A stretch of 64,000 nucleotides of DNA from positions 1,426,001 through 1,490,000 of the forward strand of contig CP071306.1 in assembly GCA_027563145.1 (NCBI GenBank). The letters run 5' to 3'. This document shows positions 8,029 to 47,088 of the stretch, in pieces. Numbering within the stretch: position 1 is the first letter of the stretch; each line of letters starts with the position of its first letter. The position numbers were made by a program, and so were the translations under genes. The notes below the pieces were generated by a model. It was not told the DNA's origin. It searched no databases and saw only the letters and a list, made by a program, of their open reading frames with translations. The stretch comes from Halocatena halophila (GTDB lineage: Archaea; Halobacteriota; Halobacteria; Halobacteriales; Haloarculaceae).

Positions 8029-8451
8029 TTAGGCTGGTTCTGATCGGAACCGCTCGATATCAAATCCATCTTCGATTGGGCCTTCCCAATCATCATCAGC
8101 ACCCACGATCAGGCGCGCATCGAGACTAGCAGCGGTCGCCAGTACAAACGTCTCTCCAAGAGCGATCGAATACTCTGCTTTGATCTCGGCAATGTCCCGT
8201 GGATTGGGAGTGATCTCCTCGAAGTTCGTCCACAGTACCTGCTCGACGTATTCATCAGTCGCTTCGATCGCTACACCTTCAATGTGGCAGATGATATAGC
8301 GAACGTCTGCAGGTGTTGCTGTACGTACGAATCCGGCAATCTCGCCGTTGTATATCTGGTCCAGCCACCCATCGATGATATCTGCACCGGGTTCATCGAA
8401 ATAGTGGACGATAAATGCCTCTGTATCGAAAACGACCCGATTGCTGCTCAC
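8029..8451 (-). CDS. vapC: PIN-domain toxin, VapC-like
   Basis: Putative ribonuclease toxin of 140 aa. PIN-domain acidic residues are visible in VVFDTEAFIVHY (first Asp), in the central Glu/Asp region, and in DARLIVGADDDW near the C-terminus. Its start overlaps the stop of the upstream AbrB-type gene by four bases, the usual VapBC layout in which the antitoxin is translated first. Target RNA unknown. Confidence 0.85.
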   Translation of the reverse strand: MSSNRVVFDTEAFIVHYFDEPGADIIDGWLDQIYNGEIAGFVRTATPADVRYIICHIEGVAIEATDEYVEQVLWTNFEEITPNPRDIAEIKAEYSIALGETFVLATAASLDARLIVGADDDWEGPIEDGFDIERFRSEPA

Positions 8452-8738
8452 TCATCATCACCGAGGAGCCGATCGTCTCGCTCTTTTTCTTTTTGCCGTT
8501 CACTGCGGAGTTCCCGAGTTGCAGCGTACGGCCCCTCCGTTGAATCTGCTCCCATTCCTTTGAATTCTGATGGATGTGGGACCTTCTCTACCGTCAGCTC
8601 CTGATGCTCATCCAGTTTGAAACGGACTTTTCCTGGCGCTGAGATTCCTACCTTCTCCCGTATCTCCCTGGGAATTGTAGCCTGACCGCTCCGTGTGACA
8701 GAGACGGTTTGATCGATTATTTCTTCGGCTACACTCAT
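8448..8738 (-). CDS. vapB: AbrB/MazE/SpoVT-type antitoxin, VapB-like
   Basis: Swapped-hairpin AbrB DNA-binding protein of 96 aa (TVSRSGQATIPREIREKVGISAPGKVRF in part, the diagnostic segment). It is followed by a polar tail that would wrap the toxin. It precedes and overlaps the PIN-domain gene, so it is expected to neutralise VapC and repress the shared promoter. Confidence 0.88.
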   Translation of the reverse strand: MSVAEEIIDQTVSVTRSGQATIPREIREKVGISAPGKVRFKLDEHQELTVEKVPHPSEFKGMGADSTEGPYAATRELRSERQKEKERDDRLLGDDE

Positions 8739-8863: not shown

Positions 8864-9286
8864 TCAGACTGTAGCTTTTTGACTTGCCGAAGCATCGATC
8901 CGTTCGAGCGGCGACTTCGGATCCGAAGCGAGGGTCAGTTGGTAAATCTCGCCAATGTTCGTTTCGTGATAGCGGACCTTCGCGCCGGTGTCGAAGGTGG
9001 CGGCCACGACGGTTTCTCCAGTCGCGCGATAGCGCGTGATTCGCTCGGTTCCGGGCAAGTGCTCGTAATTCGTCCGTTCGCTCGCGAGATCGGCCATCGT
9101 CAGAATCTGTTCAATACGCGTTGCGTGCGGACAGCCGGTCGATTGACAGGGCCGACACCACGTCCCTTGGCCGATGTCCACCACGTGGTAGAGCTCGGCC
9201 TCCGAGAGCTCAGATCGTGAATCCACCGTCGAGAGATTCACGCAGTTACGATCCTCGTCTCTGAACAAAAATAGGGGAAGCGTCAT
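8864..9286 (-). CDS. Module protein copy 1, C-terminally truncated
   Basis: Unrecognised protein (140 aa) belonging to a family with four members in this window. It starts MTLPLFLFRDEDRN, and its start codon overlaps the stop of the small zinc-finger ORF (ATGA). Conserved features are AELYHVVDIG, then TWCRPCQSTGCPH (three Cys and a His, a likely metal site) and RITRYRATGETV. Compared with the intact copy at 41789 it ends about 35 residues early: after PLERID the sequence changes to an unrelated tail, so the C-terminal region has been lost by recombination. Function unknown. Confidence 0.7.
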   Translation of the reverse strand: MTLPLFLFRDEDRNCVNLSTVDSRSELSEAELYHVVDIGQGTWCRPCQSTGCPHATRIEQILTMADLASERTNYEHLPGTERITRYRATGETVVAATFDTGAKVRYHETNIGEIYQLTLASDPKSPLERIDASASQKATV

Positions 9287-9378
9287 CGTCGCCCCCACAG
9301 CGGACAGCCAAGATGATGATCACGGTGGCCACGAAGCTGGCGCCGACAGACGACACAGCTGTGGCTGTAGTAGTTCAA
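9283..9378 (-). CDS. Small zinc-finger protein, module copy 1
   Basis: A 31-residue ORF that starts at TTG 9378 and contains SCVVCRRQLRGHRDHHLGCP. The spacing C-x2-C-x9-H-x3-C-P-x-W is shared with the diverged copy at 15933. The stop (TGA) overlaps the start of the downstream module gene by four bases. The frame stays open upstream through the leader (ATG at 9420 or 9492), so a longer form is possible. The 31-residue version is preferred because copy 3 has ATG at the equivalent codon and copy 4 has a stop just upstream. Confidence 0.55.
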   Translation of the reverse strand: MNYYSHSCVVCRRQLRGHRDHHLGCPLWGRR

Positions 9379-9549
9379 CGAGTCGGTACAATTACGGTCG
9401 CGTGTGTTCTTCCATGGCATGGGCAATCGCATCTCGTGAGAGCCCAGCGTCGGGTGACCTAACCACCCGGCGCATTCAACACGAATGCACAACGCCCCGT
9501 GGCGCAGCTGTACCCTCGTGTTGCATTGCCTCCCCGATTGCTTATAAAA
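9379..9549 (-). promoter_or_regulatory. Module copy 1 promoter and structured leader
   Basis: On the minus strand a TATA box (TTTTATA, 9543-9549) is followed by about 170 nt before the small ORF. The leader contains a perfect CAACACGA/TCGTGTTG stem around a G+C-rich inner hairpin, then a CGGGTG/CACCCG hairpin followed by ACGCTGGG. The same order and spacing occur in the three other copies. About 35 bp upstream of the TATA box (AACAGTCTTTCACAATTATT) is also identical among copies 1-3. Confidence 0.6.
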
Positions 9550-15764: not shown

Positions 15765-15932
15765 TTTATAACCCAGTGGGTTGGCACAATCAATTGGGAA
15801 TGCCAGCCCGAGATGTGGTCGCGCGTATCAAATCGCGCCGGGTGGTCATAACACCCGACGCTGGGGTTCCCATGCGGACAGAAACCCATGAAGGGAAATG
15901 CACCGCGGTACTGTAATCCTGTCGTATCGTCA
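15765..15932 (+). promoter_or_regulatory. Module copy 4 promoter and structured leader
   Basis: TATA box TTTATAA at 15765-15771, then 161 nt to the small ORF start. An outer stem pairs GGGAATGCCAGC (15796-15807) with GCTGGGGTTCCC (15860-15871), with one wobble and one mismatch. It encloses a GCG/CGC hairpin and the CGGGTG/CACCCG hairpin (15839-15857). The segment from GCCGGGTGGT through ACGCTGGG is identical to copies 1 and 3 except for about five loop positions, although the encoded proteins have diverged strongly. This argues for a selected RNA or DNA element. Confidence 0.6.
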
Positions 15933-16025
15933 ATGACTAGCACACGGTGTGCTCGCTGTGGCCAGCCGGTGGCTCGCCAACGGGCGCACGCAACGGGCTG
16001 TCCGTCGTGGAGGGTTGGCTCGTGA
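15933..16025 (+). CDS. Small zinc-finger protein, module copy 4
   Basis: A 30-residue micro-protein, MTSTRCARCGQPVARQRAHA followed by TGCPSW. Cys and His spacing is C-x2-C-x9-H-x3-C-P-x-W, exactly as in the other copies although other residues differ. An in-frame TAA lies 18-20 bases upstream of the ATG, which fixes the start near 15933. The TGA stop overlaps the GTG start of the next gene (GTGA). Zinc-finger micro-proteins under 70 residues are established in haloarchaea. The role here is unknown. Confidence 0.6.
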   Translation: MTSTRCARCGQPVARQRAHATGCPSWRVGS

Positions 16026-41525: not shown

Positions 41526-41696
41526 TTTATAAGCGATCGGGAAGGCAATGCAACACGAGAGCACAGATGCGCCACGGGGCGTTGTGCGTTCGTGTATGAA
41601 CGCGCCGGGTGTGCACACCACCCGACGCTGGGCTCTCGTCAAGGCGATTTGCCCATGCAATGGGAGAACACACGCGACCGTAATTGTACCGACTCA
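41526..41696 (+). promoter_or_regulatory. Module copy 2 promoter and structured leader
   Basis: TATA box TTTATAA (41526-41532), then about 165 nt. The ACACGA/TCGTGT stem and the CGGGTG/CACCCG hairpin with following ACGCTGGG are kept, while the loop between the latter (TGCACAC) differs from copies 1 and 3. The preceding 35 bp match copies 1 and 3. Confidence 0.6.
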
Positions 41697-41792
41697 CTAA
41701 CCTACTACAGCCACAGCTGTGTCGTCTGTCGGCGCCAGCTTCGTGGCCACCGTGATCATCATCTTGCCTGTCCACTCTGGGGGCGACGATGA
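41655..41792 (+). CDS. Small zinc-finger protein, module copy 2
   Basis: Contains SCVVCRRQLRGHRDHHLACP with the shared C-x2-C-x9-H-x3-C spacing. Unlike copies 1, 3 and 4, the codon at the expected short-form start (41697) is CTA, so the nearest usable start is ATG 41655 (MQWENTRDRN), giving 45 residues. Its stop overlaps the next start (ATGA). The start assignment is uncertain. Confidence 0.5.
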   Translation: MQWENTRDRNCTDSLTYYSHSCVVCRRQLRGHRDHHLACPLWGRR

Positions 41793-46822: not shown

Positions 46823-46992
46823 TTTATAAGCAATCGGGAAGGCAATGCAACACGAGGGTACAGCTGCGCCACGGGGCGTTGCGCGTTCGTGTTGAATGTG
46901 CCGGGTGGTTAGGTCACCCGACGCTGGGCTCTCACGAGATGCGATTGCCCATGCCATGGGAGAACACACGCGACCGTAATTGTACCGACTCG
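46823..46992 (+). promoter_or_regulatory. Module copy 3 promoter and structured leader
   Basis: TATA box TTTATAA (46823-46829). Stem CAACACGA (46848-46855) with TCGTGTTG (46887-46894); hairpin CGGGTG (46902-46907) with CACCCG (46915-46920); GGCAAT (46841-46846) can pair with ATTGCC (46944-46949) to close the whole. The leader is intact although the protein gene downstream is decayed. Confidence 0.6.
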
Positions 46993-47088
46993 ATGAACGT
47001 CTATAGCCACAGCTGTGTCGTCTGTCGCCGCCAGCTTCGTGGCCACCGTGATCATCATCTTGGCTGTCCGCTGTGGGGGCGACGATGA
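46993..47088 (+). CDS. Small zinc-finger protein, module copy 3
   Basis: 31 residues from ATG 46993: MNVYSHSCVVCRRQLRGHRD followed by HHLGCPLWGRR. This copy shows ATG at the proposed short-form start. C-x2-C-x9-H-x3-C is conserved. Stop overlaps the start of the decayed module gene (ATGA). Confidence 0.6.
   Translation: MNVYSHSCVVCRRQLRGHRDHHLGCPLWGRR

What the first reader, a model, noticed from the sequence alone, without database searches (positions are those of the whole stretch)
9283..9549. Four-copy module: structured leader, zinc micro-protein and overlapping unknown gene
Copies at about 9.5-8.9, 41.5-42.3, 46.8-47.5 and 15.8-16.5 kb share a TATA box, a leader (168-171 nt from TATA box to small ORF), a 30-31-residue C-x2-C-x9-H-x3-C protein and an ATGA/GTGA overlap with a WCRPCQST-x-C-x-H protein. 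I know no described system with this layout.
Basis: partly seen in the sequence, partly recalled or inferred. Interest (0 to 1): 0.85.

Follow-up and report, generated by a model that had tools for sequence, protein, structure and literature searches.

The report
RNA switch with hypervariable address loop
Salt-loving archaea carry, in some genomes in tens of copies, a folded messenger-RNA leader that looks like an on/off switch and whose copies differ most in one exposed loop of six or seven bases, as if each had its own address; what reads the address is not yet known.

Summary
A covariance model from 33 leaders matches 7 of 7 genomes of the genus and 130 of 392 sampled genomes of the order (46 of 95 genera). 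The leader has an outer stem P1 (all 11 pairs covary between lineages), an inner stem and a hairpin CGGGTG-N6/7-CACCCG. In four of eight groups a helix P4 clearly uses P1's 3' strand and ends at the start codon, a possible two-state switch; in the window's own genus P4 is weaker. The hairpin stem is almost invariant; its loop is hypervariable (78 loops in 90 copies, 31 of 31 in one genome) yet rule-bound. Near-identical copies can carry unrelated loops. The micro-protein usually has 45-48 residues, not 30-31; it and the ATGA/GTGA overlap persist in over 80 of 90 copies. Other genera put the leader before other proteins, many with zinc motifs. Best reading: an RNA switch addressed by loop pairing, perhaps with an antisense RNA whose promoter is convincing mainly in one family. 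Partner and protein functions are unproved.

The parts
9542..9548 (-). TATA box TTTATAA of copy 1
9418..9520 (-). structured leader RNA of copy 1, to and including the AUG
   Evidence: R1 match 69.8 bits, E 5.4e-15
9457..9463 (-). hypervariable loop GTTAGGT of copy 1 (stem CGGGTG 9464-9469 / CACCCG 9451-9456)
9283..9420 (-). ORF1 of copy 1, 45-aa C2HC micro-protein
8864..9286 (-). ORF2 of copy 1, 140 aa with altered C-terminus; ATGA overlap with ORF1
15765..15771 (+). TATA box TTTATAA of copy 2
15793..15890 (+). structured leader RNA of copy 2
   Evidence: R1 match 77.1 bits, E 8.6e-17
15845..15851 (+). hypervariable loop GTCATAA of copy 2
15888..16025 (+). ORF1 of copy 2, 45 aa
16022..16546 (+). 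ORF2 of copy 2, 174 aa, GTGA overlap
41526..41532 (+). TATA box TTTATAA of copy 3
   Evidence: position mended
41554..41657 (+). structured leader RNA of copy 3
   Evidence: R1 match 69.6 bits, E 5.9e-15
41612..41618 (+). hypervariable loop TGCACAC of copy 3
41655..41792 (+). ORF1 of copy 3, 45 aa
41789..42319 (+). ORF2 of copy 3, 176 aa, ATGA overlap; the AlphaFold model is of this one
46823..46829 (+). TATA box TTTATAA of copy 4
46851..46953 (+). structured leader RNA of copy 4
   Evidence: R1 match 66.0 bits, E 4.5e-14
46908..46914 (+). loop GTTAGGT of copy 4, the same as in copy 1
46951..47088 (+). ORF1 of copy 4, 45 aa
47085..47447 (+). ORF2 of copy 4, frame broken by a deletion (120 aa)

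Best explanation
Each unit is an mRNA with a cis-acting RNA switch in its leader. Transcription probably starts just upstream of P1. In one state P1 holds the leader in a branched fold that displays the hairpin CGGGTG-N6/7-CACCCG and leaves the AUG free; in the other the 3' strand of P1 pairs with the bases just before the AUG (P4) and hides it. ORF2 overlaps ORF1 and is probably translated by coupling, so the switch would set both. The 6-7 nt loop is an address read by base pairing, so that copies can be switched one by one; the favoured partner is an antisense RNA from the same locus that starts near the AUG and covers the leader, with loop-loop contact as first step, as in plasmid copy control and some type I toxin-antitoxin loci. 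Shown by sequence: P1, inner stem and hairpin, P4 in four of eight groups, near-invariant stem with variable but rule-bound loop, ORF overlap, wide distribution. Inferred: direction of the switch, its working in the window's genus, pairing partner, independent control. Unknown: what the proteins do.
For: P1, inner stem and hairpin over 33 distinct sequences, most from outside the genus: 94.5% of cells paired, 18 of 24 pairs with changes on both sides, covariation score 0.527 against 0.181 for shuffles and at most 0.140 when slid (alignment fitted to the model). P4 abuts the AUG with different letters in different lineages (GCTGTTTCA/TGAAACAGC, GGTTGTC/GACAACC, GGTCTTC/GAAGACC, GGCTTC/GAAGCC, GGGTTCT/AGAACCC). 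Loops: 78 different in 90 genus copies; 19/20, 10/11, 19/19, 9/9, 31/31 per genome. The 16 pairs of copies that differ by 5-10% overall have loops at 0.49 edits per site, against about 0.6 for distant pairs. Two copies 4.3 kb apart differ at 1 of 114 bases before the loop and 23 of 600 after it but carry CCACAAA and TTGGCG. In family f7 three leaders 3-5 edits apart carry TCACAG, CAAGGA, ATGCAC. Of 20 further genus leaders not chosen by the exact pattern, 19 keep the hairpin stem, two of them by paired changes, CAGGTG/CACCTG and CGCGTG/CACGCG. Loop rules: first and last base could Watson-Crick pair in 1 of 119; pos2 Y 66 and pos6 R 72 of 76 7-nt loops; linked positions; YUNR in excess on both strands. 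Synonymous codons frozen at codons 9-15 of ORF1 in 50 copies (TGT 47, AAC 50, GGT 49, GTC 50) and free further on. Antisense TATA 24 nt inside the first ORF, rank 1 of 300 positions in 6 of 9 groups.
Against: No transcript data. P4 passes z 1.5 in most members of four of eight groups only; in the genus groups in 15%, 11% and 34%, in one f7 group in none. The antisense TATA is convincing in the f7 peptide types and in L203 and L308; in the genus it is a weak TTAC (rank 2, 7, 4 of 300). Of 18 further loci, six with f7-type peptides rank 1 or 2, but of the other 12 only one ranks first. The three f7 peptide types share K at codon 10 and may be related; the motif is nearly palindromic and the sense strand also peaks there. 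No complement of the loop in the same locus nor between loops of a genome. Loops of one genome are closer to each other than expected. In other families 12 pairs with leaders 8-15 edits apart have loops 2.2 edits apart, more distant pairs 3.4, so loops partly follow descent. Some matched leaders of close species have the same loop (L020/L076, L022/L322). The same loops recur in distant genera, 11 of 52, which may point to a conserved partner. Between close species the loop (0.42 per site) changes only a little faster than fourfold sites of ORF2 (0.31, 11 of 20 pairs). Loop ends can often form a U-G wobble (T...G first-last in 12 of 65 and 14 of 25).
Confidence: 0.42

Rival explanations
1. A riboswitch-like or autoregulatory leader: P1/P4 respond to a small molecule, an ion such as zinc, or the encoded protein bound to the invariant hairpin stem; the loop is only the free end of the hairpin and pairs with nothing.
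For: P1/P4 and the invariant stem need no partner RNA. Leaders stand before proteins with zinc motifs in several families. Loops of close species change at a rate not far above fourfold sites. No loop partner was found.
Against: A loop without function should not follow strict rules (1 of 119 with Watson-Crick pairable ends, linked positions), nor be replaced whole in copies that are otherwise nearly identical, nor should identical loops recur in distant genera (11 of 52).
Confidence: 0.27
2. The loop pairs with a conserved cellular RNA or a set of them, as a T-box specifier pairs with tRNA, so that copies read different members of the set.
For: Loops resemble anticodon loops (N-Y-N-N-N-R-N) and recur in distant genera; the estimated repertoire is about 140-470. 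Slight excess of complementarity to the 16S 3' end (2.83 against 2.57, 0 of 300 shuffles; the 16S letters were recalled).
Against: Neither complementarity nor likeness to anticodon loops exceeds shuffled loops (P 0.76 and 0.30), though only 30 of 45 tRNA genes were used. Fast change fits a conserved partner badly.
Confidence: 0.11
3. A DNA element: arms CGGGTG/CACCCG around a 6-7 bp spacer are a recombination core, and the spacer varies by strand exchange or imprecise repair; the units spread as mobile elements.
For: Copies are dispersed, differ in number between species (one copy of the gene pair in G001, 31 exact leaders in G005) and lie at rearrangement breakpoints: upstream and downstream flanks of several copies match different copies in G003.
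Against: P1 and the inner stem covary as RNA. The unit holds no gene recognised as a recombinase. Plain homologous recombination between repeats explains the breakpoints and makes no new spacers.
Confidence: 0.1
4. Only a recent local duplication, with drift in an unconstrained loop.
For: Copies 1 and 4 share a loop, and the window's A-group copies are close in sequence.
Against: 20 leaders in the genome, one copy of the pair with the same leader type in G001, matches in 46 of 95 sampled genera; loops near saturation where the rest is not.
Confidence: 0.03

Closest known systems
Ibs/Sib and SymE/SymR type I toxin-antitoxin loci (Escherichia coli)
   Same: Five copies of ibs/sib in one genome, recognition domains in Sib, antisense RNA over the start of a small gene (passages of PMC4147584). 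Proposed here: antisense RNA starting at the AUG.
   Different: The toxin type usual there is small and hydrophobic (abstracts); here conserved proteins with zinc motifs, toxicity untested. A branched leader with invariant hairpin and variable loop is not in the passages I saw. Antisense RNA not shown here.
Plasmid antisense control: ColE1 RNAI/RNAII, and CopA/CopT of R1 (the latter recalled)
   Same: Loop-loop contact starts pairing; point mutations change incompatibility; diversified loops gave compatible plasmids (passages of PMC9458437). Leader reading frame coupled to the controlled gene in R1 (recalled).
   Different: Those control plasmid replication; here units mostly on an archaeal main chromosome, with no replication gene recognised.
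T-box and metabolite riboswitches (recalled)
   Same: Leader with mutually exclusive helices next to the start codon; anticodon-like loop.
   Different: No tRNA match, no Rfam family, loop differs from copy to copy.
Haloarchaeal SWIM zinc finger proteins
   Same: The same leader precedes such proteins in Haladaptatus and others. Pfam SWIM is above cut-off for L203, below it for L220 and L208.
   Different: ORF2 has C-x2-C-x4-C-x-H instead of CxC...CxH; no Pfam match and no profile similarity.

Membership tests
Type I toxin-antitoxin system | antisense RNA encoded opposite the protein gene's mRNA | tested here: inconclusive
   Antisense TATA at a fixed place in f7 peptide types, weak or absent in most other contexts; no RNA data
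Type I toxin-antitoxin system | the small protein is toxic when overproduced | not testable with these tools
   needs expression experiments
Type I toxin-antitoxin system | paralogues with divergent recognition sequences (as in Ibs/Sib) | tested here: inconclusive
   Loops diverge, 78 different in 90 copies, but that they are recognition sequences is inferred
Antisense copy-control leader (ColE1, CopT type) | hairpin loop exposed for kissing with an antisense RNA | tested here: inconclusive
   Loop ends avoid Watson-Crick pairs and YUNR is in excess on both strands; partner not shown
T-box riboswitch | specifier complementary to tRNA anticodon | tested here: not met
   P 0.76 against position-shuffled loops, 30 of 45 tRNA genes used
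Known Rfam RNA family | score at or above gathering threshold | tested here: not met
   0 matches in the window and in 11 loci that hold leaders
SWIM zinc finger (ORF2) | CxC-x(n)-CxH finger recognised by profile | tested here: not met
   No Pfam match; hhalign probability 0.3% against six SWIM proteins. Motif and predicted strand-helix order only resemble it
C2HC zinc micro-protein (ORF1) | C-x2-C-x9-H-x3-C | tested here: met
   C22, C25, H35, C39 invariant in 22 aligned (spacing longer in G001); 83 of 90 copies with x(8-14). Metal binding not tested
ORF2 and a known fold | match to a solved structure | tested here: inconclusive
Transposable element | transposase, or precise ends with target duplication | tested here: inconclusive
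   No transposase recognised in the unit; one site compared in the genus without finding precise ends

The most novel reading that the evidence does not exclude
Haloarchaeal genomes hold a repertoire of RNA switches with diversified address loops, each wired to a small operon, which together sense foreign RNA or the RNA of rival elements: an immune-like set of natural toehold switches shaped by an arms race, the recurring loops marking recurring invaders.
Probability: 0.1. Interest if true: 0.95.

Novelty: new variant of a known kind. Interest (0 to 1): 0.82.

Why it matters
If right, an archaeal class has a widespread structured mRNA leader, not in Rfam, in which a near-invariant hairpin carries a copy-specific loop. 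That would be loop-addressed RNA control on chromosomes, with tens of natural loop variants in one cell, a ready test of how RNA-RNA orthogonality evolves. It also gives a handle on proteins of unknown function in the hypha- and spore-forming haloarchaea and in Haladaptatus. Eight paper searches listed no title or abstract start that describes it; these searches cover open-licence PMC papers only and I saw listings, so earlier description elsewhere is not excluded.

Tried and rejected
Rfam: none at gathering score; the weak CRISPR-repeat and IRES hits are far below threshold. Cis pairing of the loop with leader, ORFs or flanks, both senses: 14 tests, two at about P 0.04 (both ORF2), none convincing. 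Loop-loop pairing between copies: 4.0% of pairs within and 5.1% between genomes. Palindromic loops for homodimers: P 0.008 in other genera, 0.22 in the genus, 0.03 together; not general. tRNA anticodon pairing or mimicry: rejected. A closing stem P0 between leader 5' end and ORF1: several 5' changes without compensation (by eye). RNAalifold on MAFFT alignments missed P1 in the pooled set and in groups A and C and found it in B; one G of the 3' strand is present or absent, which shifts the columns. P1 by a shuffle test on single sequences is not significant in the genus groups (mean z 0.45-0.83); its support is covariation between lineages. ORF2 as SWIM protein: rejected by profile. PDB fold matches for ORF2 (EspG, KhtT) not significant. 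Viral contigs: no confirmed relative of ORF2. Phage records: none for the SWIM protein. PADLOC: nothing for ORF1 or ORF2. The SWIM gene of two plasmids (Haloferax alexandrinus, Halorubrum lacusprofundi) goes with no R1 match in the record, and two Haladaptatus plasmids with 24 and 23 SWIM places have only 5 and 6 R1 matches, so leader and SWIM gene are not tied.

Rows dropped or doubtful: the leader analysis used 90 copies (89 by regular expression, plus the 46.9 kb copy). R1 finds 117 in the genus; 20 of the others were read later for stem and loop only. Since asked for the stem, its invariance there is partly built in; one search is the fairer test (19 of 20 paired, L334 not). One of the 20 pairs (L017/L083) was matched by group, not by flank; a closer G003 leader, L320, has the same loop as L017. 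Fourfold sites were counted in 11 of the 20 pairs. In one search one of 11 Haladaptatus loci gave no hairpin, two no ORF, and three of the 12 in the group (L240, L241, L243) were read from a wrong or shifted start. In one search, 18 of 30 loci were parsed, 12 had no hairpin by the regular expression, and some of the 18 (L312, L316, perhaps L293, L303) have a shifted start. G001 and G006 give identical coordinates and count as one observation. My note wrongly lists L318 among loci with the TDRHHAS gene; there are three. Best-explanation confidence was lowered from 0.45 to 0.42 when the P4 counts were rechecked.

Full report
What is there. The four units of the finding exist at the stated places. 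They are part of a larger set. A pattern for the WCRPCQ motif gives 19 places in the window's genome. A covariance model (R1) built from 33 leaders gives 20 leaders there and 117 in the seven genomes of the genus: G000 20, G001 2, G002 17, G003 23, G004 14, G005 38, G006 3. The window's contig has 2,676,592 bases, the length of the major chromosome of Actinoarchaeum halophilum YIM 93972 in PMC10067837, a hypha- and spore-forming haloarchaeon (section 7 and passages seen; contig length).

The proteins. Read from the ATG that closes the leader, ORF1 has 45 residues in the window's copies and mostly 48 in the third group; C-x2-C-x(8-14)-H-x3-C is present in 83 of 90 copies. It overlaps ORF2 by ATGA (60) or GTGA (24) in 84 of 90 copies; 62 of 90 have in that overlap an ORF2 of 170-190 residues with the WC motif. 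The rest are broken, cut by a contig end, longer or start elsewhere. ORF2 has an invariant C-x2-C-x4-C-x-H in 30 aligned copies and no known family above cut-off. Its model (pLDDT 76.5) has no trustworthy match among solved structures, and it is not a SWIM protein by profile. Copies 1 and 4 of the window have damaged ORF2 genes.

The leader RNA. Outer stem P1 encloses a variable region, an inner stem and a hairpin CGGGTG-N6/7-CACCCG. Over 33 distinct sequences, most from outside the genus, 94.5% of cells pair and all 11 P1 pairs show changes on both sides; shuffles and slid partners stay far below. That alignment was fitted to the model, which favours the structure. The hairpin stem hardly varies: in 20 genus leaders not chosen by the exact pattern it pairs in 19, in two of them through changes on both sides. 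The 3' strand of P1 is also complementary to the bases just before the AUG (P4): in L184 GCTGTTTCA/TGAAACAGC, L207 GGTTGTC/GACAACC, L210 GGTCTTC/GAAGACC, L202 GGCTTC/GAAGCC, G002_L054 GGGTTCT/AGAACCC. The two helices share that strand, so both cannot form fully at once. P4 exceeds shuffles in most members of four of eight groups; in the three genus groups in 15%, 11% and 34%, and in one f7 group in none. For the window's own copies the switch is thus a reading by homology.

The loop. Among 90 copies of five genomes there are 78 different loops, nearly all different within a genome: 19 of 20, 10 of 11, 19 of 19, 9 of 9, 31 of 31. The 16 pairs of copies that differ by 5-10% elsewhere have loops at 0.49 edits per site, against about 0.6 for distant pairs. 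Two copies 4.3 kb apart differ at 1 of 114 bases before the loop and 23 of 600 after it, but carry CCACAAA and TTGGCG. In family f7 three leaders 3-5 edits apart carry TCACAG, CAAGGA and ATGCAC; the next 12 closest pairs of the other families have loops 2.2 edits apart and more distant pairs 3.4, so there loops partly follow descent. In 20 pairs between close species, 19 matched by flank and one by group, the loop differs at 0.42 per site, the rest of the leader at 0.08, fourfold sites of ORF2 at 0.31 (11 pairs) and upstream sequence at 0.22, the last inflated by misaligned pairs. Two matched leaders have identical loops (L020/L076; L022/L322). So the loop changes about five times faster than the leader around it and a little faster than fourfold sites; that it exceeds the neutral rate between species is not proved, but its replacement in otherwise near-identical copies needs selection or a targeted process.

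The loop is not free. Its first and last base could Watson-Crick pair in 1 of 119 different loops, though U-G ends are common; in 76 loops of 7 nt position 2 is a pyrimidine in 66 and position 6 a purine in 72; positions are linked; YUNR, recalled as the U-turn motif of antisense RNA loops, is in excess on both strands against composition shuffles (40 and 47 of 108 against 19 and 27). Eleven of 52 loops from other genera are also among the 78 of the genus, against 0.5 by permutation within loops. This asks for a restricted repertoire, which I cannot explain fully. Loops of one genome are closer to each other than expected, so selection for maximal distance is not seen.

Distribution. In a sample of 392 genomes of the order, 130 have an R1 match at E 0.01 or better per genome, in 46 of 95 genera; about four would be expected by chance, and E-values are rough. 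Five of eight genomes searched more fully have 11-21 matches. In family f7 the leader is followed by a short ORF, often with an ATGA overlap to a second small protein, in many loci with CPxCG-like zinc motifs, in one type (L217, L222, L226) a protein without them and near Pfam HalOD1 but below its cut-off. Haladaptatus and some others have the leader before a SWIM-like protein. In f12 a 64-residue C2HC protein follows the leader (L308), much like ORF1 here, and three loci (L207, L300, L307) have a further gene with a TDRHHAS motif. G001, of the window's genus, has one copy of the gene pair, with leader loop CAGGGA, so the pair may be ancestral to the genus and was multiplied later.

What reads the loop. 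No complement lies in the same locus, loops of a genome do not pair with each other more than loops of different genomes, and tRNA anticodon loops are not matched. The natural cognate would be an antisense RNA of the same locus. On the antisense strand a TATA-like box lies 24 nt inside the first ORF, the best of 300 positions in 6 of 9 groups and rank 2, 7 and 4 in the three genus groups; a transcript from it would start near the AUG. In 18 further loci the average peaks again at 24 (z 5.1), but through six f7-type loci and L308; of the 12 that are not f7-type only L308 ranks first. In the window's genus the box is only TTAC. What is firm there is that codons 9-15 of ORF1 have frozen synonymous sites in the 50 copies of the third group (G002, G004, G005) while later codons vary, so something at nucleic-acid level overlaps the start of ORF1. 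Haloarchaeal promoters have been given the elements TTWT, CGAAA and WW, and antisense starts are common in Haloferax volcanii (passages of PMC4983044).

Other observations. Upstream and downstream flanks of several copies match different copies in G003, so the units sit at rearrangement breakpoints, most simply by homologous recombination. Copies are nearly confined to the main chromosome: 20 of 20 R1 matches in G000, 22 of 23 in G003, 31 of 31 exact leaders in G005, which has weaker matches on other contigs.

Verdict. The conserved thing is a structured RNA leader with a near-invariant hairpin, a copy-specific loop and, clearly in some lineages, a start-codon switch. Control by pairing at the loop is the best reading (0.42), with an antisense RNA as the favoured but unproved partner. 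It works like plasmid antisense control or multi-copy type I toxin-antitoxin loci; membership in either is not established.

Noticed in passing
window copies 1 and 4 and L088, compared with L084, L085, L086: Upstream and downstream flanks of these three copies match different copies in G003: the units are breakpoints of chromosome rearrangement.
   Followed up: partly
L207, L300, L307: The same leader stands before an operon with a later gene that has a TDRHHAS motif; PADLOC gives only a weak Csm3 match for the L207 one (E 0.03), so a Cas7-like protein is possible but not shown. L318 shares only the first protein type.
   Followed up: partly
L210, L220, L230, L237-L246 (Haladaptatus): Leader before SWIM-like genes, with an inverted repeat beside the TATA box in several (by eye); L220 has a divergent ORF that resembles helix-turn-helix regulators below cut-off. 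SWIM places reach 24 in one plasmid record.
   Followed up: partly
L203 and L308: A C2HC motif like ORF1 of this finding is the C-terminus of a SWIM protein in L203 and a separate 64-residue protein behind the leader in L308.
   Followed up: no
window 8029-8738, minus strand: Two small ORFs that look by eye like an AbrB-type antitoxin and a PIN-domain toxin lie directly downstream of copy 1.
   Followed up: no
L022 downstream flank; G003:C1:2125325-2125525: Fragments of the ORF2 3' end lie near whole copies, signs of partial duplication and decay.
   Followed up: no
G001 and G006: Two genomes of the genus give identical coordinates for their shared matches on C1; one may contain the other.
   Followed up: no
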